A stretch of 64,000 nt of DNA. Origin: Candidatus Gastranaerophilales bacterium (GTDB taxonomy: Bacteria > Cyanobacteriota > Vampirovibrionia > Gastranaerophilales > Gastranaerophilaceae). A program made the translations under genes and the position numbers. The notes under the pieces were generated by a model that did not search any database, was not told the origin of the DNA, and worked only from the letters and a program-made list of their open reading frames with translations. The stretch is taken from NCBI GenBank assembly GCA_944325885.1, contig CALVBT010000009.1, positions 1 to 64,000 on the forward strand, written 5' to 3'. This document shows positions 14,516 to 48,471 of the stretch, piece after piece. Within the stretch, counting starts at the first letter, position 1. Every line of letters starts with the position of its first letter.

Positions 14516-15229
14516 ATGCGCAAATTTATAGTTACTATGCTGGTATTTACAGGAATGTTCTGTTCTGCACAAGACAAAGGTTTTTGCGGTATACTTGACG
14601 CTGCTAGATATGATGAGGACGCCACTATTTCTGAAATATATGAAAAGATGTCACCCGCAATCGTTCTTATAGAAGCTGATGTGAAAGACGGACTTTCCAG
14701 CGGTACGGGGTGTATTATTGACTCAAAAGGCCTTATTTTAACAAGTTCTCACGTTATATCAGGTGCGCCTGCTATTCAGGTTACAATTTCAACAGGAGAG
14801 GTCTTTAAAGGCGAAGTCGTTTCTGTAATGGGCAAGGACAATGATTTGGCGTTGATTAAAATAAAAGCAAATAAAGAACTCCCTGTAATAGCTCTGGGCG
14901 ACTCTGAAAAGGTTAAAGTAGGTCAAAAAGTATTGGCAATAGGCAATCCGTTCGGCTTTAACGGAACTTTGACTACAGGTATTGTGTCTAGGATTGATTA
15001 TTCAAAAAATAAAATACAGACTGATGCTGCTATAAACCCCGGTAACTCCGGCGGCCCTATAATCAATATCCACGGCGAAGTCATTGGCATAAGCCAGTCA
15101 ATTTACAATCCTGATAACAACATATCAAATATCGGCATAGGATTTGCTGTGCCGATAAATGAAGCTAAAAATTTTATAAAATTGTCTATGTCTAACAATT
15201 CAAAGTTAAGTAAAACTACTACAAATTAG
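14516..15229 (+). CDS. HtrA/Deg-type secreted serine protease without PDZ domain
   Basis: 237 aa. Signal peptide MRKFIVTMLVFTGMFCSA, then a trypsin-like S1C domain with all three catalytic residues: His79 (LTSSHVISG), Asp110 (KDNDLALIK), Ser178 (NPGNSGGPI). It ends about 50 residues after the serine, where DegP/DegS family members normally continue into PDZ domains. It probably degrades damaged envelope proteins in the periplasm. The reading frame is open upstream to 14198, but GAGAGAGGAG 5 bases before ATG 14516 and the signal peptide fix the start. Stops of this and the next gene overlap. Confidence 0.9.
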   Translation: MRKFIVTMLVFTGMFCSAQDKGFCGILDAARYDEDATISEIYEKMSPAIVLIEADVKDGLSSGTGCIIDSKGLILTSSHVISGAPAIQVTISTGEVFKGEVVSVMGKDNDLALIKIKANKELPVIALGDSEKVKVGQKVLAIGNPFGFNGTLTTGIVSRIDYSKNKIQTDAAINPGNSGGPIINIHGEVIGISQSIYNPDNNISNIGIGFAVPINEAKNFIKLSMSNNSKLSKTTTN

Positions 15230-15549
15230 TATTTAAATGAACGCTCGATATTCTTTTGCAGCAGCTGATCGCAGGAATCAAATTCAGTATCAATCATTTT
15301 CAATTTATCTTTGTACTCCTGCAGCTGCATATCGAGTTTCTTTTCCATTATATTTAAACGCTCTTTACGGGCCTCCAGTTTTTTGACCATCGGATCATCA
15401 GCGTCAAGATCTGTACCGACGTTAATCAAATCTGTGCAGGTCTTTGCCAGATTCATCTTTGCTTCGGTAATCAGCTGTATTTTATACTCCAGATCCAGCC
15501 TGTAAGCATTTAAATACATTAATCTCAATTGTGACGTTGCCATTCCCAT
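15226..15549 (-). CDS. short paired-helix family protein (MGMA-SQ paralogue)
   Basis: 107 aa. It begins MGMATSQLRLMYLNAYRLDLEY, clearly related to the starts of the 17075 and 18305 proteins, and ends in a coiled coil finishing LLQKNIERSF, matching their KVIDKNI...FKTF tails. It lacks their ~200-residue central domain. The DADDPMVKKLEAR segment matches NDPRVKQLQAM in the 44248 protein. Predicted to be almost wholly helical; no signal peptide. Function unknown; last gene of a minus-strand cluster of related proteins. Confidence 0.8.
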   Translation of the reverse strand: MGMATSQLRLMYLNAYRLDLEYKIQLITEAKMNLAKTCTDLINVGTDLDADDPMVKKLEARKERLNIMEKKLDMQLQEYKDKLKMIDTEFDSCDQLLQKNIERSFKY

Positions 15550-17074: not shown

Positions 17075-18061
17075 CTAGCTCTGGAAGGTTTTGAATACGT
17101 TATCAATATTTTTATCAATAACCTTTTTAACAGAATCAAGTTCTGTTTGAAGAGCTTCCTGCTCAGTATCGAGCTGTTTTAGTCTTAACTCAAGGGTTCT
17201 GTCTGTTTCTTGGAGTTCTTGAGTTTTTGCATTTATATCTGCAATTTCTTTGTCATAATTTGCTCTATCAATATTGTATTGATCCATTGCCTGATCATAA
17301 GCCTGTTCATCATAGCTCTGTCCGGCAGTCAATGTACGATTTTGAGTAACACCCTGGTCATCAGTCCAGCTCATCTGTGTATATGTGCCGGATGAAGTCT
17401 GAGACATTGTTACATTGTGCAATTGTTCGTTGACTTGTTCTGTAGTCTGGATTGCTGAATACAGAGTAACAGGCTGCCAATCATTAGTCGTATCCGGATT
17501 AAAGCCAGAAACAGTAGCGTTTATATAATAAGTCGCATTATTAGCAGTATTTGTATACATATAGTATGTGTCTGTAGCTTTGTTTTCATTGGTACCGGCA
17601 GCCTTGTTCATTTCGTTAACAAGAGCATCTGAAATATTGCCCTCAATTTGTTTGATAGTAGTAGATGTCCCGTCTTCAAAATGCAATTCATAGCTTCCGT
17701 CATCATTTACTGTTGTATAAACATTTTGATTTTTTGTTGCCTGATATTGCATTATATTCCTGTTATATGAGATATCAACAGTGTATGTTGGCGGATTTGA
17801 GCCTTCTTCTGGTGCAATATTTGATATAGTAACTTGCCCGTCGGTAGTTGCTGAAGAATCTGTGTATGTATAAGTGTCTGTATAGTACTCAGCCTGAGTC
17901 GGAGCTGTAGGTGCTTCCAAAGAAAGAAGTCTTCTAAATAATCCGGCACTTTCATTGGCCAGTGCTGTACGTTGTTGGTTGACCTGCTGTCCTTCATACT
18001 CAACATTCGTTTTTCTTGCTGTCAAGCCTAGATATCTGGCTTGTGATGCTGCCATACCCAT
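17075..18061 (-). CDS. MGMAASQ-family paired-helix protein with central variable domain
   Basis: 328 aa. The first 45 residues (MGMAASQARYLGLTARKTN, EYEGQQVNQ) and last 75 residues (heptad-rich, LKQLDTEQEALQTELDSVKKVIDKNI, FKTF) are nearly identical to the 18305 protein. Residues 55-240 differ and are Thr/Tyr/Asn-rich and strand-like. Helical ends flanking a variable middle is the plan of flagellins, hook and type III filament proteins; this is a structural analogy, not a homology claim. No Sec signal. GGAG lies upstream of the ATG. Second of a tandem pair. Confidence 0.85.
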   Translation of the reverse strand: MGMAASQARYLGLTARKTNVEYEGQQVNQQRTALANESAGLFRRLLSLEAPTAPTQAEYYTDTYTYTDSSATTDGQVTISNIAPEEGSNPPTYTVDISYNRNIMQYQATKNQNVYTTVNDDGSYELHFEDGTSTTIKQIEGNISDALVNEMNKAAGTNENKATDTYYMYTNTANNATYYINATVSGFNPDTTNDWQPVTLYSAIQTTEQVNEQLHNVTMSQTSSGTYTQMSWTDDQGVTQNRTLTAGQSYDEQAYDQAMDQYNIDRANYDKEIADINAKTQELQETDRTLELRLKQLDTEQEALQTELDSVKKVIDKNIDNVFKTFQS

Positions 18062-18157
18062 ATATTAAGTCTCCATTCTTGTTTCTTGCTAACCTATTAA
18101 AATTTAATTATCCTTTTTTAAAAGTCATATTTTTCGTGTTCATTGTTAAGATTTATT

Positions 18158-18175
18158 ACCCTTATTATAAAGGGT
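18158..18175 (-). promoter_or_regulatory. palindrome around a -10 box upstream of the 17075 gene
   Basis: ACCCTT-ATTATA-AAGGGT: on the minus strand the six-base centre reads TATAAT, a perfect -10, and 6-base inverted repeats flank it exactly. It lies about 100 bases upstream of the gene starting at 18061. Looks like a promoter-operator, but no -35 or regulator was identified. Confidence 0.4.
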
Positions 18176-18237
18176 TGCAGCTTCTTTTTTAAAGCCTCTT
18201 TTCTTAAAAATACTCTGTTTGGTGTACTCAGATTTTA

Positions 18238-18290
18238 GTAAAAACCGGCTTTCGCAGAGACTTTCAGAAAATCCTTTTTGGAAAGCCGGT
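18238..18290 (-). terminator. terminator of the 18305-19318 gene
   Basis: Perfect 10-bp stem ACCGGCTTTC / GAAAGCCGGT (18244-18253 and 18281-18290) with a 27-base loop, followed on the minus strand by TTTTTACT. It separates the two tandem paralogues into separate units. Confidence 0.75.
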
Positions 18291-18304
18291 ATAGAATCGG
18301 AGTA

Positions 18305-19318
18305 TTATGCAAATGTTTTAAATGTTTCTTCGATGTTTTTATCAATAACCTTTTTAACTGCGTCTAACTCTGTTTGAATTGCCTGTTGTTCTGTATCTAA
18401 CTGGTCAAGGTGCAATTCAAGTGTTTTATCTTGTTGTTGAATGATTGTTGTTTTAGCGTTTATATCAGCAACCTGTTTTTCGTAAATATCTTTTTTAGCT
18501 TGATATGTTTCCATAGCAGCGTTATATGCATCTTCGTCCTGTGTAGTTTGCTGAGTCAAAGAGCAGGTAACGAGTGTGCCGTCTGCATTTGTGAAAGTAA
18601 TTTTTGACCATCTGCCTGTGCCGTCACCAGCTGAAGTGAGGATTGCATCATTGCTGAAGTCCATTACATCTCTTGTTGTACTTTCTGCAGAGTAAATATC
18701 CAGGCTGCCTGCAGCATTGATTCTGTTTACCATTTCTTCAGTTGTTTCTTCGCCGCTTGCAGCAAGTATGTAGTATTCCGTACCTGTTGCAGTATCGCTG
18801 AATTTGAAGTAATAAGCATCGTCATTGATATTTTCATTTTCAGGATCTGTTTCTTTAAAATCTTCTGTTAAAGCAGGAGCCTGAACAGGGCCTGAAATAG
18901 TTTTTGGCGAATTACCTGCAAATTGGATTGTATATACACCTTTATTTTTATCATCTTCAGTAAAGATAAATCTGTTTGTACCTGTGCCGTCAGCTTTATA
19001 ATTTGCTTTATTGGCTAATATTTCAGGTTGTTTTTTTGTATAATGCACTGTATAAGTGTCTGAATCTTTATTTGGAAGGATAGAGTTTACTGTATAGCTT
19101 TCAGAAGTAGTGTAATCAGTAAATACATACTCAGTTTTTGTATAATCAGTAGCATTAGGAGGTGTTGGCACATCCAATGCTAACATCTGGTTGAATAAAC
19201 CTGCGCTCTGGTTTGCCAGTGCTGTTCTTTCCTGGTTAACCTGTTGACCTTCATACTCTGTATTTGTCTTTCTTGCTGTTAAGCCGAGGTATCTGGCTTG
19301 TGATGCTGCCATTCCCAT
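18305..19318 (-). CDS. MGMAASQ-family paired-helix protein with central variable domain
   Basis: 337 aa paralogue of the 17075 protein. Same N-terminal box (MGMAASQARYLGLTARKTN, then EYEGQQVNQERTALANQSAG) and same C-terminal coiled coil (DQLDTEQQAIQTELDAVKK, VIDKNIEETFKTF). The middle, about residues 55-250, is different in sequence but again Thr/Asp/Tyr-rich (TKTEYVFTDYTTSESY, YTVHYTKKQP). AAAGGAG stands 8 bases before the ATG. It has its own terminator downstream and about 200 bases of leader region upstream. Probable secreted or surface structural protein; export route unknown. Confidence 0.85.
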   Translation of the reverse strand: MGMAASQARYLGLTARKTNTEYEGQQVNQERTALANQSAGLFNQMLALDVPTPPNATDYTKTEYVFTDYTTSESYTVNSILPNKDSDTYTVHYTKKQPEILANKANYKADGTGTNRFIFTEDDKNKGVYTIQFAGNSPKTISGPVQAPALTEDFKETDPENENINDDAYYFKFSDTATGTEYYILAASGEETTEEMVNRINAAGSLDIYSAESTTRDVMDFSNDAILTSAGDGTGRWSKITFTNADGTLVTCSLTQQTTQDEDAYNAAMETYQAKKDIYEKQVADINAKTTIIQQQDKTLELHLDQLDTEQQAIQTELDAVKKVIDKNIEETFKTFA

Positions 19319-19514
19319 TGCTAATACTCCTTTTGTTATTGCATATCTGTTTTTATAATCGACATTTGTAGTTGAAAACTTTAGGAATATTGTTTTAAAT
19401 GTTACAAAACTGTTACATTAAAATCTTAATTCCAGTTAATTATCTTATTATTACTGGAACTTTAACCTATCACACTATCTGTTTTTTATATAATGACAGT
19501 TTGAAAAAAATCAA

Positions 19515-19547
19515 TAAAAAATCCCGAACATTGACTTGTTCGGGATT
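19515..19547 (-). terminator. ilvC terminator
   Basis: 11-bp stem AATCCCGAACA / TGTTCGGGATT with loop TTGACT, followed on the minus strand by TTTTTTATTG; 20 bases past the ilvC stop. Confidence 0.9.
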
Positions 19548-19566
19548 TTGGTATGTTAAGAACAAT

Positions 19567-20595
19567 TTAGTTTTTATCTCTGTTGATAATTTTATCATTG
19601 TCTTTCCAGGCAAATTTAGAACGGAGTTCTTTACCAACTTTTTCAATAAGGTGTTCTTCGCCTTCTTTTTCGAGCTGTCTGAACTTTTTCATGCCTGAAT
19701 TGTATTCATTCAGCCATTCTGTAGCAAATTTGCCGTCTTGAATTTCTTTTAAGACTTTTTTCATTTCTTCTTTTACTTCTGGAGTAATTATTCTCGGACC
19801 GATAGTCAAATCACCCCATTCAGCAGTGTTGGAAATTGAATATCTCATATCAGAAATACCGCCCTGATTTACAAGGTCAACGATTAGTTTCATTTCGTGC
19901 AGACATTCAAAATAAGCCATATAAGGAGAATATCCTGCTTCTACAAGAACCTCGAACCCTGTTTTTATCAGAGCTGACAGACCACCACAAAGAACAGCCT
20001 GTTCACCGAACAAATCTGTTTCTGTTTCTTCTTTGAAGCTTGTTTCATAAATACCGGCTCTACCGGCACCTATTGCAGAAGCATAAGCAAGAGCAACATC
20101 TTTAGAATCGCCTGACGGATCTTGATATATAGCAATAAGAGAAGGCACGCCTTTGCCTGCGAGGTATTCGCTTCTTACTGTATGGCCCGGGCCTTTTGGT
20201 GCAACCATTAATACGTTTACATCAGCAGGCGGAACAATTTTTTTGAAGTGGATGTTAAATCCGTGTGCAAACATCAAATACTGACCTGCTCTCAGGTGAG
20301 GTTTGATTTGTTCTTCATAAACTTTTGCCTGAACTTCGTCAGGGATAAGAATCTGAATTAAATCAGCCCATTTTACGGCTTCTTCTATGCTGACAACTTT
20401 AAGACCTTCTGCTTCTGCTTTTTTTGCAGAAGAACCGCCCAGTCTTGCGCCGATAACAACATCTACGCCGCTGTCTTTAAGGTTTGTTGATTGGCCGTAA
20501 CCCTGTGAGCCATAACCTATAACCGCAACTTTTTTGTTTAAAATATGGCTTTTGTCAATATCGCTATCCATATAAACTTTTAATTCGTGTGCCAT
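19567..20595 (-). CDS. ilvC: ketol-acid reductoisomerase
   Basis: 342 aa, class I (short) form. Second enzyme of valine/isoleucine/leucine synthesis: rearranges and reduces acetolactate or acetohydroxybutyrate with NAD(P)H and Mg2+. Rossmann motif [11 protein letters not shown] near residue 27 and the knotted C-terminal domain with [17 protein letters not shown] and the Mg-binding [15 protein letters not shown] region. The Arg/Ser stretch [11 protein letters not shown] after the second strand suggests NADPH preference. Stands alone, without ilvB/N/D neighbours, with its own promoter and terminator. Confidence 0.97.
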
Positions 20596-20632
20596 TCTCT
20601 TCTCCTTATTAGTGTAACACCTCTATTCGAGT

Positions 20633-20660
20633 ATTTTATCACATTTTTATTTGCAATCAA
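20633..20660 (-). promoter_or_regulatory. probable ilvC promoter
   Basis: On the minus strand: TTGATT (20660-20655), 16-base spacer, TAAAAT (20638-20633). An AAGGAG ribosome site follows just before the ilvC ATG. Confidence 0.55.
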
Positions 20661-20812
20661 AATAAATATGCAAATTTATTCTACTTTTGTAATAAAACAC
20701 TAGACAAATAATATCTTTTGTGCAAATATATAGTGTACAAAATACATTTGGTATTTGAAAGCAAAGACAATGAGAATTAGAAAGTATCAAAAACGACAAT
20801 TTTATACTAACT

Positions 20813-20907
20813 AGAAGGTCTTTACACAATTTTGAAAAGATTGCGCTATTGCGCATGAGCATAGTAAGAATTTTGTAAAGTCTTCTGAAAATTCGGAAGG
20901 CTTTTTT
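20813..20907 (+). promoter_or_regulatory. terminator with overlapping alternative hairpin (attenuator or small RNA)
   Basis: The terminator stem AAGTCTTCTG (20878-20887) / CGGAAGGCTT (20894-20903) is followed by TTTTTTG. Its left arm can instead pair upstream: 20813-20831 (AGAAGGTCTTTACACAATT) complements 20869-20886 (AATTTTGTAAAGTCTTCT) with two single-base bulges, enclosing a small hairpin TGCGC-TATT-GCGCA (20842-20855). The two folds exclude each other. A TATACT at 20803-20808 could start a transcript right at the first arm. No known riboswitch or T-box sequence recognised. It could equally be the 3' part of a small RNA. Confidence 0.5.
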
Positions 20908-21015
20908 GTCTGCAAAATTACTGAATGTATGTTACAAATTATAAAAAAAATGCTTTTTTATAGCACAAAATCTTATTCAGATTCATTAATACACTTAAAT
21001 CAAGGAGAAAATTAA

Positions 21016-21096
21016 ATGTTTAATAACCGACGAAATACACAATCAAGGGCAAATTCTCAAATAGTATTAGTTATGAACTTGGTATGGGGCCTATAG
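21016..21096 (+). CDS. 26-codon branched-chain-rich leader-like ORF
   Basis: Starts at ATG with AAGGAG 9 bases upstream and reads MFNNRRNTQSRAN, then SQIVLVMNLVWGL and TAG. Seven of eleven residues in IVLVMNLVWGL are Ile, Val or Leu, as in ilv/leu attenuator peptides. Its last codons overlap a stem GGGG-CC-TATAG / CTATA-CCCC (21086-21109) that ends just before the ribosome site of the next gene. The gene downstream is a membrane protein, not an amino-acid enzyme; ilvC is divergent. A genuine tiny protein is an alternative. Confidence 0.5.
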   Translation: MFNNRRNTQSRANSQIVLVMNLVWGL

Positions 21097-21128
21097 TACG
21101 CTATACCCCGTGTGTAAAGGATTTTTAA

Positions 21129-22586
21129 ATGTTAATTAATAAAATTACTTCAACTTTTGGCGATCACTCAAATTTATTACCGTTATTTACAAAAGACGTC
21201 GTAAACAGCACAGGCATGACAGCATTTTCTTACGACGCCGGCGGAAAAATAGAAGCTAAGGACAGATTCATAGATGAATTTGGTACTCAGGCTATCTGGA
21301 TGGGCGGACTTCCCGGTTTCAAATGGATTATTGACAATACTGCCTATAAACTGGCAAAAATGAATCCTGACGTTGATGTCAGACTTTTAAAAGATAAAGA
21401 ACAATTAAGTGTTGCTCAAAATTATGCAAACTCACTTAAAGACAAAAATTTTGCAAAAATATTAGCAGATACAGCTGCTCATACTAAAAAGGCACAAGGC
21501 TTGTTCCTCGGCAAATTCGCAGCTGCTACTGCTTTGACTTTGGCTTCTTTCTTTACGCTTGTTAAAGTTAAACAGCACTATACAAAGAAAGAAATTGAAA
21601 AACAGTTCTGGGCTAAAAAATCAGCTGAACTTCAATATACAAATTCCTTGGCTCAAAGCCCTGCTTTCAAGGCATTTATGCCTGCAAACAAAGCAAATAC
21701 ATCTGATTCCAACAAACAAAATAATAAAAATGTTTCATTTAAAGGTTTGGGGTCCGTGCTTTCAGGCGTTATGTTTGACCCTGTAAAGAACCTGTTTATT
21801 GTTGATGTAGGTATTACAGGTGAAAGACTTGTTAACTCAAGAACAAAAACAGAATTTGCTGAAACAGCAATAAAAGAAGGCAGCCTCTTATTCTTCCTGT
21901 ATGTTGCAGGAAGCTATGTACAAAAAGGTATAGAACAATTCAGTGAAAAACTTATGGGCAAACCAATAGGCCTGCACGCAGAGGTTCTTGCTTCTTCTTA
22001 TATGAATAAGGATATTGCTTCAGGCAAGGCTGATAAAGATGTAAATAAAGTAAAAGAATTGATTAACAATGTAAAAACAGCCAAGCAGCAATATAAAACA
22101 AAACAGTCTGATGCTGCAAAAGAATCTGTAAAAGCTGCTAAAAAAGCTCTTTATGAGTACATATACAGTGCAGAAGCTCAAGAAAATACTGTTATCAAAG
22201 CAGCAAAACATTCCGGCACCATCAAAACAATTGTAAACGGCAGCTGGTGGCAGAAATTAACAGGCAAAGCACAAAATACTCACAAAATTGATCCTTATCA
22301 ATTTATAAAAATCGGTGATATTGATGCAGTTGCTGATAATATTGCTAAATTGTCAAAACAGGCTTCAGGCCAAAAAGACTTAACAAAATTCCTGAAATCT
22401 TGCAGAAATATGAAGATTGCGTCCGTTGCTGCAAATATGGGTATAACCTGCTTGTTCTTAGGTCTGATTGTTCCTTATTCTATGATGAAATACAGAGAAA
22501 AACATCAAGACGGTAAAAAAGAATTCCACGTACAGTCAGAAATAGAAAAACAACTCGAAAAGAGCTTTAAAGGCAGAATCGCATAA
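21129..22586 (+). CDS. large hypothetical membrane protein with VSFKG box
   Basis: 485 aa, function unknown. Hydrophobic segments near residues 55, 130-147 (KFAAATALTLASFFTLV), 250-265 (SLLFFLYVAGSYV) and 440-460 (ANMGITCLFLGLIVPYSMM). The second half between them is Lys/Ala-rich and helical. It contains NVSFKGLGSVLSG near residue 202 and DVGITGERLVNSRTKTEF, features I associate with lineage-specific Melainabacteria membrane proteins (recollection, not a search). AAAGGA is upstream of the ATG. It follows the leader-like ORF by 32 bases and ends in a strong terminator. Confidence 0.8.
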   Translation: MLINKITSTFGDHSNLLPLFTKDVVNSTGMTAFSYDAGGKIEAKDRFIDEFGTQAIWMGGLPGFKWIIDNTAYKLAKMNPDVDVRLLKDKEQLSVAQNYANSLKDKNFAKILADTAAHTKKAQGLFLGKFAAATALTLASFFTLVKVKQHYTKKEIEKQFWAKKSAELQYTNSLAQSPAFKAFMPANKANTSDSNKQNNKNVSFKGLGSVLSGVMFDPVKNLFIVDVGITGERLVNSRTKTEFAETAIKEGSLLFFLYVAGSYVQKGIEQFSEKLMGKPIGLHAEVLASSYMNKDIASGKADKDVNKVKELINNVKTAKQQYKTKQSDAAKESVKAAKKALYEYIYSAEAQENTVIKAAKHSGTIKTIVNGSWWQKLTGKAQNTHKIDPYQFIKIGDIDAVADNIAKLSKQASGQKDLTKFLKSCRNMKIASVAANMGITCLFLGLIVPYSMMKYREKHQDGKKEFHVQSEIEKQLEKSFKGRIA

Positions 22587-22606
22587 TTCAATTCATTATT
22601 AATAAT

Positions 22607-22637
22607 TAAAAAGCCCTCTTTATTGTAGAGGGCTTTT
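22607..22637. terminator. bidirectional terminator between convergent genes
   Basis: AAAAAGCCCTCT / AGAGGGCTTTTTT stem with A-run before and T-run after; serves the 21129 gene and probably the convergent GNAT gene. Confidence 0.9.
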
Positions 22638-22644
22638 TTATACC

Positions 22645-23625
22645 TTATTGTACAGGTCTGTATGCCTGCGTGTAGTAATAATCTTCTTTAAAACCTAATC
22701 TTCTGTACATTTTTAGTGCAGCATAGTTGTCAGTTTCTGTGCTGGCGTTGAGTTCTGATAGGCTCAATCCGCTTTTTTCCGTTAGGAGTTTCATTGTATT
22801 GTATAGCAATGCCTCGCCAAGCCCCTTAGAACAGTGTTCTTTAAGCATCCCGACAAGAGGAATATTAGCTATTCTGCCGGCTGTAATGTTTGCAAAACAA
22901 ATGCCAACAGGTTTCTTTTTATAAAGAAGAACACTTGTCGCATTAGGAAGAAATTTGCCGTACACGCCTGTTACTATTTTATTTAAAATATCTTTTGAGC
23001 CTTCTATAGAAGCAAATCTCGGGTCAAATAAGGCATCAGATGTTTCTTTAAACGCATTGTTTATGACATTTACCATTTCATCACAGTATTTGCCGTCCCA
23101 AGTCTTTATTTCATAGTCTTCCGGTAAAGATTTTTGTTTATAATTTCTATAAACCTCTATGGACTTCAAATTAGTAAAGATAAAGCGTTCTACAGCCAGT
23201 CCTACAAGTTTAAAACCGTAGTTTGTTATTTCCGGCGTAAACTGCTCCTGAGAACCCAGCATAGGGTATGTAACCACCTTATCCTTGATTATATCTTTGT
23301 TTATTTCCATAAATTTGTCCATAAGGACACGTCTTTTTTCGTTAAGATGCTCGTCGCCGAGACAATGTATAATGTTGAGTTCAAGAGCTTCGCTAATTTC
23401 TGTTGTGTAGACCATAAATGCTGTTGGTATTTCGTCTTCAAACAAAATAAGGCAGTCAATCAGCCCTTCTTTCAGGCTGGCAATAAAGTCATCATATTCA
23501 AGAGGCTCAAGCTCAAACTTATAGACTGAGTATGCCTTATTTTTAAAGTCATTGTATACGCCTTTAAAAATGTTTTTTATATCATCTGAATATTTTCCAA
23601 CTTTATACGCTAAAGTTTCTGCCAT
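22645..23625 (-). CDS. GNAT-family N-acetyltransferase
   Basis: 326 aa. The C-terminal 100 residues carry a GNAT fold: substrate strand TSVLLYKKKPVGICFAN, the acetyl-CoA loop region CSKGLGEALLYNTMKLL and the closing motif NYAALKMYRRLGFKED. The N-terminal 180 residues look like a second, degenerate acetyltransferase domain (ECLIDCLILFEDEIPTAFMVY-like). Substrate unknown. The ATG overlaps the ribBA stop (TAATG), so it is the last gene of the rib-containing operon. No signal peptide; cytoplasmic. Confidence 0.82.
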   Translation of the reverse strand: MAETLAYKVGKYSDDIKNIFKGVYNDFKNKAYSVYKFELEPLEYDDFIASLKEGLIDCLILFEDEIPTAFMVYTTEISEALELNIIHCLGDEHLNEKRRVLMDKFMEINKDIIKDKVVTYPMLGSQEQFTPEITNYGFKLVGLAVERFIFTNLKSIEVYRNYKQKSLPEDYEIKTWDGKYCDEMVNVINNAFKETSDALFDPRFASIEGSKDILNKIVTGVYGKFLPNATSVLLYKKKPVGICFANITAGRIANIPLVGMLKEHCSKGLGEALLYNTMKLLTEKSGLSLSELNASTETDNYAALKMYRRLGFKEDYYYTQAYRPVQ

Positions 23626-24908
23626 TATACTTGCTCCGAATTATTTTGTATCTTGTCTATTTCAAGCATGTGATGCATTTTGTTGGCCTTTGTACAAAGA
23701 TATCTGTAATTGTATTTTGTACATTCCGAATCAACGTGGACTCTTTCTGCTATTTCAAGGCCGTAACCTTCTAAACCGACAATTTTTTGCGGGTTATTTG
23801 TAATTAATTTAAATCTTTTAAAGCCCAAATCTAGCAAAATCTGCGCTCCATCGCCATAATCTCTCAAGTCAGAGTTAAATCCAAGTGAAAGATTTGCCTG
23901 TATTGTGTCTTCGCCTTTGTCCTGCAGAACATAAGCTTTGATTTTATTAACAATGCCGATGCCTCTACCCTCGTGGTTCATTAGATAAACAACAGCACCT
24001 TTGCCATAATCGTCTATCATTTTCATAGAGTTTTGAAGCTGGCTGTTGCAGTCGCATCTAAGGCTGTGAAAAGTATCGCCGGTGAGGCAGATGCTGTGCA
24101 TTCTGACCAGAGGAATTTTGTCTGACCCGTCATCTTTTAACAGTGCTACATGCTCTTGCCCTGTTAACTTGTGTCTGTAGCCGATTAGTCTAAATGTGCC
24201 AAACGCAGTGGGCAGGTTTACTTCGGCTTCTCTAATCATTAGCTTTTCATTTTTAAGCCTGTAAGAGATCAGCTGAGCAACTGTAATAAATTTAATACCG
24301 TGTTTTTGTGCAAATTTGTGTAAATCATCTCTGCGAGCCATAGAACCGTCAGGATTTACAATCTCACAGCACACACCAACATCTTTTAGTCCGCCAAGTT
24401 TACATAAGTCAACAGCAGCCTCTGTATGGCCGACACGCTCAAGAACTCCGCCCTGCTTTGCTATCAAAGGAAAGATGTGTCCCGGCTGCCTTAAATCACA
24501 CGGCTGTGCATTATCGTCTGCCATAAGTTTTAGTGTAATTGACCTGTCGTAAGCAGAAACACCTGTTGTTACACCATATTTGGGGTCAGCATCAACACTC
24601 TGAGTAAAGGCTGTTCCTTTTACATCGGTGTTGTTTTTTACCATATAATCAAGGCCGAGCTTTTTTGCACGTTCAAAGCTAATTGGAGCGCAAAGCACGC
24701 CCTTTGCCTCTGAAATCATAAAATTAACATTTTCGGGTGTTGCAAACTCGGCTGCACATATAAGATCGCCTTCGTTTTCACGTGCCTCATCATCGGCTAC
24801 AATAACCATACCGCCGTTTTTGAGGGCTTCCAATGCTTCTTCTACAGTATCAAAACTGCAGTTTGCATCTTTATTAAAAACTTCTTTTATATTTTCAAGT
24901 AACGACAT
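23625..24908 (-). CDS. ribBA: bifunctional DHBP synthase / GTP cyclohydrolase II
   Basis: 427 aa. Residues 1-205 are 3,4-dihydroxy-2-butanone-4-phosphate synthase (DDEARENEGDL, SVDADPKYGVTTGVSAYDR, RQPGHIFPL, GHTEAAVDL). Residues 210-410 are GTP cyclohydrolase II with the three zinc cysteines in SICLTGDTFHSLRCDC and the MNHEGRGIG motif. Makes both precursors of riboflavin from ribulose-5-P and GTP. Overlaps ribE by TAATG upstream and the GNAT gene by TAATG downstream. ribD and ribH are not in the window. Confidence 0.97.
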   Translation of the reverse strand: MSLLENIKEVFNKDANCSFDTVEEALEALKNGGMVIVADDEARENEGDLICAAEFATPENVNFMISEAKGVLCAPISFERAKKLGLDYMVKNNTDVKGTAFTQSVDADPKYGVTTGVSAYDRSITLKLMADDNAQPCDLRQPGHIFPLIAKQGGVLERVGHTEAAVDLCKLGGLKDVGVCCEIVNPDGSMARRDDLHKFAQKHGIKFITVAQLISYRLKNEKLMIREAEVNLPTAFGTFRLIGYRHKLTGQEHVALLKDDGSDKIPLVRMHSICLTGDTFHSLRCDCNSQLQNSMKMIDDYGKGAVVYLMNHEGRGIGIVNKIKAYVLQDKGEDTIQANLSLGFNSDLRDYGDGAQILLDLGFKRFKLITNNPQKIVGLEGYGLEIAERVHVDSECTKYNYRYLCTKANKMHHMLEIDKIQNNSEQV

Positions 24909-46175: not shown

Positions 46176-46754
46176 TTATAAAATTCCTTTTGTTGAAGGA
46201 ATGGCATTGCCGCTGCCTTTTTTTGCAGCCTCTGCCGTTGCTCTTGCAAAAGCTTTAAACGCAGCTTCTACTATATGATGAGAATCAACGCCGTCCAGCT
46301 GTTTTATATGGACTGCACACCTTGCATTTTGGGCAAAACTGTTGAAAAAGTGAGGCAGAAGAATAGCAGAAAAATCAGAAATTTTTTCTTCCTTTATATC
46401 CAGAGCCAAACGAGAGCATGCTCTGCCTGAAAAATCCACAGCAGAAAGCACCAGTGCCTCGTCCATGGGCAGAACAAAGTATCCGTATCTATTTATACCC
46501 GCCTTATCATTTAAAGCCTCATTAAAGGCACTGCCCAGTGCAAGAGCAACATCCTCAACCAGATGATGTTCATCCCCGTCAAGAGATTTTGCCTTAATTG
46601 TTAAATCAAAGCCGCTATGGTGACAAAACTGTTCTAACATATGTTTGAAGAACAAACACTCGCACTCAACGTGATAGGCACCGTTTCCGTCAAGATTAAG
46701 CTCTATAGATATTTCTGTTTCCTTGGTATTTCGTTTTACGCAACTATATCTCAT
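46176..46754 (-). CDS. hisB: imidazoleglycerol-phosphate dehydratase
   Basis: 192 aa, monofunctional. Dehydrates imidazole glycerol phosphate in histidine synthesis. Metal-binding motifs FFKHMLEQFCHHSGFDL, GDEHHLVEDVALALG, MDEALVLSAVDFSGRA and DGVDSHHIVEAAFKAFARA are intact, except that the usual FFDHM reads FFKHM and the N-terminus is short and divergent. The frame extends to TTG 46775, but ATG 46754, with GGAG upstream and overlapping the end of the hisC fusion, gives the normal N-terminus. Coupled to that gene. Confidence 0.93.
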   Translation of the reverse strand: MRYSCVKRNTKETEISIELNLDGNGAYHVECECLFFKHMLEQFCHHSGFDLTIKAKSLDGDEHHLVEDVALALGSAFNEALNDKAGINRYGYFVLPMDEALVLSAVDFSGRACSRLALDIKEEKISDFSAILLPHFFNSFAQNARCAVHIKQLDGVDSHHIVEAAFKAFARATAEAAKKGSGNAIPSTKGIL

Positions 46755-48471
46755 CAGACAGTTTCTCCAATACAATCTTTAAATTGTTTATGTTATCAAT
46801 AACATCATTATCGCCATTTTCAAGCAACAATTTTTTGTAATCCTCAGTTTTGTCAGAAGGCGGCAGAACGCCGACACCGTAGGCCCCAAAACCAGCAGCG
46901 CACTTTGCATCATCAACCGTATCGCCAAAGTAAATCAACCTGCTTGTAAAAAATGCGTCCTTTATTATGTTCAAGCCCTGCGGATGCGGTTTTTGCTGGC
47001 TTTTTGACAGATCATTCATTGTCACCATTACAGAAAAATACCTGTCCAAATCAAATTTCTTTAAAGTGTAGAGGGCTTCTTCTCTTGGCCTACCGGTAAA
47101 AAGTGCTATGTTGTATTTTTCAGCGAGATAAGCAAGCAATTTGGGGTCAATAAGCAAGGTTTCGTTGTTTATTGACCCGTTGCCGTCATTCCAGTAATGC
47201 TGTTGAAAAACAGTAACAATATCCTCATAAGCAAAATTAAACCCGTATTTTTCAATTAGGTGAGCTGTCAAGTCCCAATCATTGTTCAAACCGCCTTGAT
47301 TTTTTGCGGCTTTGATTTCCTCATCTGACAGCTCTTTGCCAGTAAAATACTGATAAGTGTATTTTACTGCGGCATAATAAGAATCAGAAACATCGACAAG
47401 CACTCCGTCCATATCAAAGACCAGTGTGTCACGTGAACTTATTACATCAATGATTTTTTTTGCTGCAGCAGCTGTAGGGAGCGTGATACGCAAACAACCT
47501 TTAAGTTCTTCCGAGTCTTTAAACTTTTTGACTATAATTTTGTTAAATTTTAATTTTTCATACAAAACCTCACACCTATTGCCAAAATCTGCAAGCAAGA
47601 AGTTTGCATAAGAATCGTAACATTTAACACCAAGTTTTGATAACTCATCAGTCAAATATTCTTTTGAGTTTTTTATTTCATCTTTAACAAATTTTATGTA
47701 ATTTTTATCACCAAGAGCAGCCTCAACAGCAGCTACAGCAACAGAATTTACGTTATAAGGGCTTAATAATTTTTTTATGTTCTCAATATTTTGAGGTGCA
47801 GATATTACACAGCCGAACCTCAAACCAGCAAGGGCAAAATCTTTTGAAAAAGACCTTACAACAACTACATTGTCGTAACTCTTCACCAGTTTGATATTAG
47901 ATACATCAGAAAAGCTTGAATATGTTTCGTCAATAACAAAACATTTATCCGGATAAGCTTCTATCAGCTCCAAAATCGATTCTGTGCATACAATATCACC
48001 TGTAGGATTGTTAGGTGTTGTAATCAAAACTATTTTTACTCTGTCAGAAATCGCTGCGTTTATTTCATTCAGCGGGTATTCCCACTTTATTGTATAAGGA
48101 ATTTCTATATACTCAGCACCAATTAGCGAAGCATACAACTTTGGCATTGAAAAAGACGGAAATGCTGTCAAAACTGCATCTTCTTTTGTCAAATAAGTAT
48201 TCAAAACAGAGCAGAGAGCTTCATCTGCACCGTTTGTGATAGCAATATGATTTTTAGGTATATCAAAATATTGCGCCAATTTATCATAGACAGAGCCATA
48301 ATATGGATAATGAGATACACTTGAAGAAGGGATGTTTCTTATTGCATCCATCACAAGTGCAGACGGCCCAATATAATTTTCATTGGAATCAAGCTTCATA
48401 TCCCAATTTTCAGGATACGCAGGCGTTTCATATACTTTTATGTTATTTAATTCTTTTCTTGGTTCAATCAT
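46744..48471 (-). CDS. fused histidinol-phosphate aminotransferase and HAD phosphatase
   Basis: 575 aa. Residues 1-345 are a HisC-type class I/II aminotransferase (LDSNENYIGPS, TNGADEAL, TTPNNPTGD, DETYSSFSD, Schiff-base lysine at 210 in VRSFSKDFALAGLRFG, RITLP). Residues 348-575 are a HAD subfamily IA hydrolase with nucleophile and acid Asp353/Asp355 (VFDMDGVLVD), ALFTGRPREEAL and YFGDTVDDAKCA. HisC makes histidinol phosphate and a HAD phosphatase can remove its phosphate, so the fusion may perform two successive steps; this is inference. hisB follows with overlap. Confidence 0.92.
   Translation of the reverse strand: MIEPRKELNNIKVYETPAYPENWDMKLDSNENYIGPSALVMDAIRNIPSSSVSHYPYYGSVYDKLAQYFDIPKNHIAITNGADEALCSVLNTYLTKEDAVLTAFPSFSMPKLYASLIGAEYIEIPYTIKWEYPLNEINAAISDRVKIVLITTPNNPTGDIVCTESILELIEAYPDKCFVIDETYSSFSDVSNIKLVKSYDNVVVVRSFSKDFALAGLRFGCVISAPQNIENIKKLLSPYNVNSVAVAAVEAALGDKNYIKFVKDEIKNSKEYLTDELSKLGVKCYDSYANFLLADFGNRCEVLYEKLKFNKIIVKKFKDSEELKGCLRITLPTAAAAKKIIDVISSRDTLVFDMDGVLVDVSDSYYAAVKYTYQYFTGKELSDEEIKAAKNQGGLNNDWDLTAHLIEKYGFNFAYEDIVTVFQQHYWNDGNGSINNETLLIDPKLLAYLAEKYNIALFTGRPREEALYTLKKFDLDRYFSVMVTMNDLSKSQQKPHPQGLNIIKDAFFTSRLIYFGDTVDDAKCAAGFGAYGVGVLPPSDKTEDYKKLLLENGDNDVIDNINNLKIVLEKLSDEI

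What the first reader, a model, noticed from the sequence alone, without database searches (positions are those of the whole stretch)
21016..21096. Orphan branched-chain leader peptide in front of a membrane-protein gene
A 26-codon ORF with a good ribosome site carries the run IVLVMNLVWGL and ends inside a GC-rich stem. It looks like an ilv/leu attenuation peptide, yet the downstream gene is a lineage-specific membrane protein, and ilvC lies divergently 420 bases away. Either the membrane protein responds to branched-chain amino-acid supply, the leader was stranded by a rearrangement, or this is an unrelated tiny protein.
Basis: partly seen in the sequence, partly recalled or inferred. Interest (0 to 1): 0.55.

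Follow-up and report, generated by a model that had tools for sequence, protein, structure and literature searches.

The report
Tandem arginine-codon leaders before membrane gene
The tiny reading frame is a real, strongly conserved leader peptide, the second of two in a row in front of an uncharacterised membrane-protein gene of gut Gastranaerophilales bacteria, and the leaders look built to sense slow reading of rare arginine codons rather than branched-chain amino acids.

Summary
The 26-codon ORF is real: all 29 readable loci among the 30 fetched by the downstream gene carry it, and its last 10 codons have dN/dS 0.02 in the genus. It is not a branched-chain sensor: three of the seven Ile/Val/Leu positions are often other residues elsewhere, and ilvC is a neighbour only in this genus. 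Conserved instead are L-M-N-L-x-W-G-L-stop and, codon for codon, CGA-CGA (CGA: 13 of 355 Arg codons in window genes). The CGA pair sits just 5' of a helix strand whose partner follows the uORF stop; the strands co-evolve (0 of 5,000 permutations). Upstream lies a second, unreported leader with co-evolving antiterminator and terminator; 87 of 121 such leaders carry tandem Arg, mostly CGA-CGN. Paralogous genes carry His-rich leaders (19 of 20). Best reading: tandem attenuators, transcriptional then translational, raising a membrane protein when Arg-tRNA(ICG) runs short. Arginine and the role of WGL-stop are inferred, not shown.

The parts
20770..20814 (+). Leader 1 ORF, MRIRKYQKRQFYTN* (14 codons; Arg codons AGA, AGA, CGA; CGA at 20794-20796)
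   Evidence: for coordinates; 18 of 20 same-genus loci have the identical peptide, the 20 loci giving 15 distinct DNA sequences; codon 9 is CGA in 19 and CGC in 1; identical peptide in another family, L080
20813..20826 (+). Antiterminator strand 1, overlapping the leader 1 stop codon
   Evidence: 1:2 duplex -12.8 kcal/mol; strand 1 x strand 2 co-variation over 87 loci, own -14.0 against permuted -10.1, 0 of 5000
20874..20886 (+). Antiterminator strand 2, also the 5' side of the terminator (mutually exclusive pairing)
20877..20904 (+). Intrinsic terminator hairpin, followed by a run of T from 20905
   Evidence: 12-pair stem; 2 terminator-like sites found in the region against 0.1 in shuffles; -13.7 kcal/mol; terminator string in 20 of 20 same-genus loci
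21002..21007 (+). Ribosome site of leader 2 (AAGGAG)
   Evidence: sequence; same-genus alignment
21016..21096 (+). Leader 2 ORF (the finding): MFNNRRNTQSRANSQIVLVMNLVWGL*
21028..21033 (+). Tandem CGA-CGA arginine codons of leader 2, proposed control codons
   Evidence: Arg at -22/-21 is CGA in 96 of 97; CGA-CGA in 99 of the 113 loci with RR (147 examined); CGA is 13 of 355 Arg codons in 26 window genes and 3 of 725 in 60 orthologous downstream genes
21036..21041 (+). Helix A, 5' strand (inside leader 2, 2 nt after CGA-CGA)
21086..21109 (+). Helix B' hairpin: GGGG of the Trp-Gly codons with CCCC after the stop
   Evidence: sequence; folds; in the long-spacer loci of other genera the same GGGG pairs with CCCC inside the ORF
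21111..21116 (+). Helix A, 3' strand, abutting the ribosome site of the main gene
21116..21121 (+). Ribosome site of the membrane-protein gene (AAAGGA)
   Evidence: sequence; AAAGGA within 45 nt after the uORF stop in 20 of 20 same-genus loci
21129..22586 (+). Regulated gene: 485-aa lineage-specific helical membrane protein

Best explanation
The ORF is leader peptide 2 of a two-step ribosome-controlled leader in front of a lineage-specific membrane-protein gene. Step 1 (transcription): leader 1 ends on strand 1 of an antiterminator; a ribosome that finishes leader 1 covers strand 1 and lets the terminator form, while a ribosome held at the CGN arginine codons leaves strand 1 free, the antiterminator forms and transcription continues. 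Step 2 (translation): in leader 2 a ribosome held at CGA-CGA covers the 5' strand of helix A and frees the 3' strand next to the main gene's ribosome site; ribosomes running on to the conserved LMNL[IV]WGL-stop melt helix B and terminate a few effective nucleotides from that site, so the two reading frames are translationally coupled. CGA, CGT and CGC should be read here by a single tRNA, Arg(ACG, read as ICG), so the signal is most likely shortage of charged Arg-tRNA(ICG), i.e. low arginine, and the output a starvation-induced membrane protein. Shown here by comparison: conservation, exclusive linkage, codon choice, co-varying helices. Inferred: direction of the response, arginine as the signal, ribosome stalling, and any arrest by the WGL-stop end.
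For: Peptide selection: dN/dS 0.021 in the last 10 codons. Codon selection: CGA in 96 of 97 Arg codons at -22/-21 against AGA in 16 of 17 at -9; CGA is 3.7% of Arg codons in 26 window genes. Decoding: the places of all 43 tRNA hits of the genome give Arg anticodons TCT, CCT, CCG and ACG, none TCG. Helix A co-variation: 60 long-spacer loci, own -10.6 against permuted -7.3 kcal/mol, 0 of 5000; 42 mid-gap loci, -7.3 against -5.1, 0 of 5000. Geometry: helix A starts 0-4 nt after the RR codons in 67 of the 85 loci with RR and a duplex of -5 kcal/mol or better. Coupling: 38 spacers of 35 nt or more fold (mean z -2.5 against 50 plain shuffles each) and collapse to about 21 nt, the 34 shorter ones show no excess (mean z -0.15 for those of 10 nt or more); with gaps of 8 nt or less the Gly codon is GGG in 10 of 13 loci against 6 of 134, so the Trp-Gly codons double as a ribosome site (Fisher 2e-9). 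Leader 1: of 138 loci with enough upstream DNA 123 have a terminator, 121 a small ATG ORF, 87 an RR; 84 of 102 RR pairs are CGA followed by CGT, CGA or CGC; antiterminator strands co-vary. Five loci lacking leader 2 keep a leader 1 with adjacent CGA-CGN (L092, L093, L094, L102, L103). Paralogous genes carry His-rich leaders in 19 of 20 fetched regions, 17 with a terminator-like hairpin. In Salmonella, Arg-Arg pairs with CGA (and with AGA or AGG, also rare there) stall ribosomes in a his-leader assay (PMC4046918, passages read).
Against: In the window's own genus leader 1 has three separated Arg codons (AGA, AGA, CGA), not a tandem pair. 34 of 147 leader 2 loci have no RR. The g36-type loci examined show LMNLIWGL-like ends without RR and without an RR leader 1, so part of the function cannot depend on arginine codons. 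15 of 138 loci gave no terminator in the automatic scan, two of them (L012, L016) same-genus loci where the alignment does show one. The leader 1 ORF was picked as the most Arg-rich candidate at its place, which favours RR. The window region as a whole is not unusually stable (z +0.94). In the long-spacer loci folded, the main ribosome site is mostly unpaired, so how helix A would block it is unclear. The control stretch for helix A also showed a small excess (-5.4 against -4.9, sd 0.18). Helices B and D are nearly invariant and co-vary weakly (3 pairs with two-sided changes, 69 of 500 shuffles as high; co-variation score 7 of 500). Nine loci have the main gene without leader 2. No arginine gene was shown to share the leader. 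No expression, toeprint or ribosome-profiling data exist here.
Confidence: 0.6

Rival explanations
1. Leader 2 is mainly a nascent-chain arrest peptide: the C-terminal LMNL[IV]WGL stalls the ribosome at its own stop codon in response to some ligand or stress, TnaC or SpeFL style, and the CGA codons only pace the ribosome.
For: The conserved residues end exactly at the stop; the distance from RR to the stop is steady (22 residues in 44 of 60 loci with RR); 15-codon forms keep only KKLMNLIWGL* (L083, L117); g36-type loci keep the C-terminus without RR; UAG is enriched at the uORF stop, 65 of 147 against 9 of 60 in the main genes and 15 of 55 in window genes.
Against: L027 reads on three codons (WGLCST*). 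Two g37 loci keep CGA-CGA and lose the C-terminus (MKRRQNNNAV* and MKRRQKH*). No arrest was measured. It does not explain the codon-level selection for CGA or the attenuator of leader 1.
Confidence: 0.25
2. Passive coupling: the uORF merely delivers ribosomes to the main gene by termination and re-initiation, the peptide itself being irrelevant.
For: Short effective stop-to-start distance; GGG ribosome-site tuning in short-gap forms; such leaders are proposed to be common in bacteria (PMC4833913, abstract and first part of the Findings section read).
Against: The last 10 residues are under strong amino-acid selection (dN/dS 0.021), which a passive uORF would not need. The same paper found no distance peak for such leaders in cyanobacteria.
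Confidence: 0.08
3. Branched-chain (ilv/leu) attenuator controlling the membrane protein or belonging to ilvC.
For: The IVLV..L.V...L run, conserved within the genus, and ilvC next door in this genus.
Against: Three of the seven branched-chain positions are often other residues in other genera; ilvC is at 0 of 112 pattern loci and 0 of 9 other-genus loci; no terminator-like site between this ORF and the gene.
Confidence: 0.02
4. Independent small protein or secreted peptide acting in trans.
For: Conserved short basic-then-hydrophobic peptide.
Against: Not found away from the gene: all 107 uncut blind-search loci hold it; two g42 genomes with two copies of the gene have a leader before each (L075 and L089, L072 and L088); only the last 8-9 residues are widely conserved; base-paired helices run through the frame.
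Confidence: 0.04

Closest known systems
Ribosome-mediated transcription attenuators (his, trp, leu leaders of enterobacteria)
   Same: Leader 1: short ORF with candidate control codons, stop codon over antiterminator strand 1, mutually exclusive antiterminator and terminator, rare control codons.
   Different: Proposed control codons are CGN arginine, tandem in 87 of 121 leaders found but not in this genus; order Gastranaerophilales; the target is an uncharacterised membrane protein; followed by a second leader peptide. No Rfam family reached its gathering score in window 18000-24000.
Translational attenuators and stop-codon arrest peptides (ermC leader, TnaC, SpeFL)
   Same: Leader 2: 15-35 codon uORF, conserved residues running up to the stop, helices between uORF and the region of the main ribosome site.
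   Different: No shared sequence motif that I recall; control codons near the start; arrest not demonstrated.
Fungal arginine attenuator peptide (arg-2/CPA1 uORF; recalled, not compared here)
   Same: About 25-codon uORF linked to arginine, conserved Trp near the end, proposed action at the stop.
   Different: Eukaryotic, senses free arginine, reduces expression; no homology claimed.
Sec/YidC-monitoring arrest peptides (SecM, MifM, RAPP-type; PMC10987492 and PMC7897499 seen in a search listing only)
   Same: Upstream peptide of a membrane-related gene.
   Different: 26 residues are too short to reach the translocon while tethered (general knowledge); no RAPP/RAGP motif.

Membership tests
Ribosome-mediated transcription attenuator (leader 1) | Short translated ORF in the transcript leader, conserved as peptide | tested here: met
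   identical 14-residue peptide in 18 of 20 same-genus loci, which give 15 distinct DNA sequences; translation itself not measured
Ribosome-mediated transcription attenuator (leader 1) | Terminator with a mutually exclusive antiterminator, co-varying | tested here: met
   0 of 5000 permutations, 87 loci with RR leaders
Ribosome-mediated transcription attenuator (leader 1) | Repeated control codons for one amino acid | tested here: inconclusive
   RR in 87 of 121 loci with a candidate ORF, 84 of 102 pairs CGA-CGH, ORF chosen as the most Arg-rich; the window's own genus has only separated Arg codons
Ribosome-mediated transcription attenuator (leader 1) | Downstream gene makes or imports the sensed amino acid | tested here: inconclusive
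   no known family or convincing fold match
Translational attenuator (leader 2) | uORF immediately upstream of the regulated gene | tested here: met
Translational attenuator (leader 2) | Alternative helices that can hide the main ribosome site | tested here: inconclusive
   Helix A co-varies and includes the site in L151, but the site is mostly unpaired in the long-spacer loci folded
Translational attenuator (leader 2) | Ribosome stall in the uORF changes main-gene translation | not testable with these tools
   Needs reporters, toeprinting or ribosome profiling
ilv/leu branched-chain attenuator | Run of Ile/Val/Leu control codons conserved | tested here: not met
   Kept within the genus but three of seven positions often differ between genera
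ilv/leu branched-chain attenuator | Controls an ilv or leu gene | tested here: not met
   the next gene is the membrane protein; ilvC at 0 of 112 pattern loci
TnaC/SpeFL-type stop-codon arrest peptide | Ligand-dependent arrest at the stop codon | not testable with these tools
   Only the conservation pattern is compatible

The most novel reading that the evidence does not exclude
A two-input leader unknown so far: the same mRNA is read first by an arginine-codon transcription attenuator and then by a second leader peptide that combines tandem CGA codons with a new stop-codon arrest sequence, LMNL[IV]WGL, so that tRNA(ICG) charging and a second signal (possibly free arginine, as in the fungal arginine attenuator peptide) jointly set the level of an amino-acid-starvation membrane protein whose paralogue is under histidine control.
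Probability: 0.25. Interest if true: 0.82.

Novelty: new variant of a known kind. Interest (0 to 1): 0.62.

Why it matters
It suggests regulation, and a first hint of function, for an uncharacterised membrane-protein family with a match in 198 of 289 sampled genomes of the class (E 0.001): paralogues seem tied to arginine and histidine supply, which predicts amino-acid uptake or a related starvation role in gut bacteria mostly known from metagenomes. It adds a codon-specific arginine sensor and a candidate new arrest sequence to a lineage next to the cyanobacteria, for which a 2016 paper states that there was no reliable data on attenuation (PMC4833913). The codon dependence is directly testable by swapping CGA for AGA in a reporter.

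Tried and rejected
Branched-chain attenuation, stranding by rearrangement and a trans-acting small protein were considered and rejected (see rivals). Stop-codon read-through or bypassing into the main gene was considered: the frames agree in some short-gap loci (gap 6 nt) but not in others (gaps 4, 14 nt), and the main gene has its own start, so it was dropped. A pseudoknot within leader 2 (helix D GGCGA/UCGUC crossing helix B) fits the third-base bias but co-varies only weakly and is left open. The Rfam search of 18000-24000 gave nothing above gathering scores; a Phe_leader match over leader 1 (24.6 bits, cut-off 55) is below threshold. Fold searches with the predicted main protein (pLDDT 88) gave no convincing match: best Foldseek E 0.035, best VIA Z 6.3, mostly ABC-exporter membrane domains, a level the tool warns is common for unrelated helical bundles; the PDB sequence search gave nothing below E 0.7 and Pfam nothing above cut-off for the window protein. 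The class-level search with the leader 2 model matched 171 of 289 genomes at E 0.05, all in families f1, f6 and f7 of the own order. The order search at E 1 (343 of 383 genomes) includes chance hits and is not used as a count. Paper searches for this or a like system: Gastranaerophilales with leader peptide, 0 papers; the peptide letters, 0; Melainabacteria with attenuation and leader peptides, 0; apart from the three papers named in the report as read, all were seen as listings only. Supplementary catalogues of small genes could not be searched, so the peptide may already sit unnamed in one.

Full report
What is there. The ORF at 21016-21096 is present exactly as described. Its stop lies 32 nt before an ATG that opens a 485-aa helical membrane protein with no Pfam or NCBIfam assignment above cut-off. 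Loci found blind by its motif are titled mostly Candidatus Gastranaerophilales, Melainabacteria, cyanobacterial or unnamed gut MAGs, so the window is placed in that order by inference.

Conservation. Searching 59 related genomes with the main protein returned 30 loci; all 29 with readable upstream DNA carry the peptide. In the genus (20 loci, 16 distinct) the last ten codons change almost only synonymously (dN/dS 0.021; preceding twelve codons 0.62), and between ten genera the last eight codons have pS 0.90 against pN 0.077. The core is M-N-L-x-W-G-L-stop: six residues invariant in 18 peptides, N, W, G, L invariant and M nearly so in 28. Forms range from 15 codons (MHKHSKKLMNLIWGL*) to about 35, with start codons chosen by a simple score.

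Linkage. All 80 listed parse as a uORF, and in the 75 with enough sequence a gene with the same kind of N-terminus starts 2-129 nt later. By tblastn 107 of 112 loci hold the main gene; the other five have the motif within 200 nt of the end of the DNA held. The reverse is not true. A cis-acting leader explains this asymmetry.

Not branched-chain. Among 80 loci position -9 is K or R in 72, -10 is Q or K in 23 and -11 is not I, V or L in 14; position -4 is R, K, S or A in some other loci, though the scan pattern itself forced I, V or M there. The Leu at -5 and -1 are fixed, but so are Trp and Gly. ilvC is adjacent in 16 of 20 same-genus loci with upstream DNA, 0 of 9 other-genus loci of that set and 0 of 112 pattern loci.

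Codon-level signal. Arg at -22/-21 is CGA in 96 of 97 cases while Arg at -9 is AGA in 16 of 17. CGA makes up 13 of 355 Arg codons in 26 window genes and 3 of 725 in 60 orthologues of the main gene. In 147 distinct loci 113 have RR in leader 2, 99 of them as CGA-CGA. ARAGORN on the places of all 43 tRNA hits of the genome (96.75% complete) found Arg anticodons TCT, CCT, CCG and ACG and no TCG, so CGA should be read only by the inosine tRNA (that ACG becomes ICG is general knowledge). In Salmonella, Arg-Arg pairs with CGA, AGA or AGG stalled ribosomes in a his-leader assay, CGA being the poorest of CGU/C/A (PMC4046918, passages), and attenuator theory expects control codons read by an isoacceptor that loses charge easily (PMC1183508, passages).

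RNA structure of leader 2. Helix A pairs bases just after the RR codons with bases just after the uORF stop. Its sequence differs between lineages but the partners fit each other: mean duplex energy -10.6 kcal/mol for own pairs against -7.3 for permuted pairs in 60 long-spacer loci (0 of 5000 as low), and -7.3 against -5.1 in 42 mid-gap loci (0 of 5000). A control stretch at the spacer end gave -5.4 against -4.9, a smaller excess of the same sign. Helix A begins 0-4 nt after the RR codons in 67 of the 85 loci that have RR and a duplex of -5 kcal/mol or better, the search being limited to 26 nt after RR. In the window it is 21036-21041 with 21111-21116, next to the ribosome site; L015 shows a two-sided change of the same helix. 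In L151 the 3' strand includes the ribosome site itself; in the long-spacer loci folded the site is mostly free. Helix B uses the GGGG of the Trp-Gly codons, pairing inside the ORF in the long-spacer alignment and after the stop in this genus; the 11 pairs of B and the crossing helix D are 92% paired but nearly invariant. Spacers of 35 nt or more (38 loci) fold (mean z -2.5) to an effective length of about 21 nt; the 34 shorter ones show no excess. Where the gap is 8 nt or less the Gly codon is GGG in 10 of 13 loci against 6 of 134 elsewhere, making GGGGG at ribosome-site distance. This points to coupling between the two frames.

The second leader. In all 20 same-genus loci examined a 14-codon ORF (window 20770-20814, MRIRKYQKRQFYTN*, identical in 18) is followed by a terminator (window 20877-20904) and a competing antiterminator whose first strand overlaps the ORF's stop. 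Over all loci, of 138 with 420 nt or more upstream, the automatic scan found a terminator in 123, a small ATG ORF at the right place in 121 and an RR in 87, typically like MQNRTRRIVRLLKGLF*; 84 of 102 RR pairs are CGA followed by CGT, CGA or CGC. The ORF was taken as the most Arg-rich candidate, a bias towards RR but not towards CGA. The strands co-vary (own -14.0, permuted -10.1, 0 of 5000, 87 loci); in the KGLF-type leaders the last codons form strand 1. Of the nine loci without leader 2, five keep a leader 1 with adjacent CGA-CGN (L092, L093, L094, L102, L103), L101 has CGA-AGA-CGC, L095 and L096 a single CGA there (but CGA-CGA in a shortened leader 2), and L104 shows no terminator (L093 read by eye). 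The g36-type loci examined have the LMNLIWGL-like end without RR and without an RR leader 1. So the arginine-codon module and the C-terminal peptide module are separable.

Paralogues. Upstream regions of 20 more distant paralogue matches (14 from the genus, 6 from others; E 3.2e-12 or lower) were fetched: 19 have a short ORF with 3-5 His such as MNTLLFTKHHHNHHIVPIRL*, 17 of them with a terminator-like hairpin after it; the 20th (L245) appears to lie inside a gene. The most His-rich ORF was chosen in each. Histidine-type leaders in front of paralogues make amino-acid control of this family the natural reading.

The regulated protein. AlphaFold2 from 58 sequences gives a confident all-helical model (pLDDT 88) with four hydrophobic segments in a simple hydropathy scan. 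No solved fold or family matches convincingly. The family has a match in 198 of 289 sampled genomes of the class.

How it most likely works. See Best explanation. Shown by comparison: both leaders are conserved coding sequences, both have co-varying helices, CGA is selected at codon level, leader 2 was not found apart from the gene. Inferred: that ribosomes stall there, that the signal is Arg-tRNA(ICG), that expression rises on starvation, and what WGL-stop adds. Literature: PMC4833913 abstract and first part of its Findings section read; PMC1183508 and PMC4046918 passages read; all other papers seen only in search listings.

Noticed in passing
L226-L244 (upstream of paralogues of window 21129-22586 in other genomes): His-rich leader peptides (for example MNTLLFTKHHHNHHIVPIRL*), 17 of 19 with terminator-like hairpins, in front of membrane-protein paralogues: apparent histidine attenuators.
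   Followed up: partly
L105 and L107, upstream of a paralogue: A different conserved leader, MTKISRQQHHFHPNPKGLGVLLFL* and a close variant, ahead of another paralogue.
   Followed up: no
L162 and L165 spacers between leader 2 and the gene: Nearly the same GC-rich repeat-like element sits inside the spacer hairpin of two species, with an outer stem kept; L173 has a somewhat similar long spacer.
   Followed up: no
L080 against the window: Leader 1 peptide MRIRKYQKRQFYTN is identical in a genome of another family of the order (f7), a striking depth of conservation for 14 residues.
   Followed up: partly
L184: A 3.7-kb contig in a MAG named Muribaculaceae carries this leader and gene; probably a binning error.
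   Followed up: no
window 46176-48471: A 575-aa ORF that looks like histidinol-phosphate aminotransferase fused to a HAD phosphatase, followed by a hisB-like ORF (names recalled from the sequence, no search run).
   Followed up: no
window 17075-18061, 18305-19318, 15226-15549: Genes sharing an N-terminus like MGMAASQARYLGLTARKTN, apparently a lineage-specific paralogous family.
   Followed up: no
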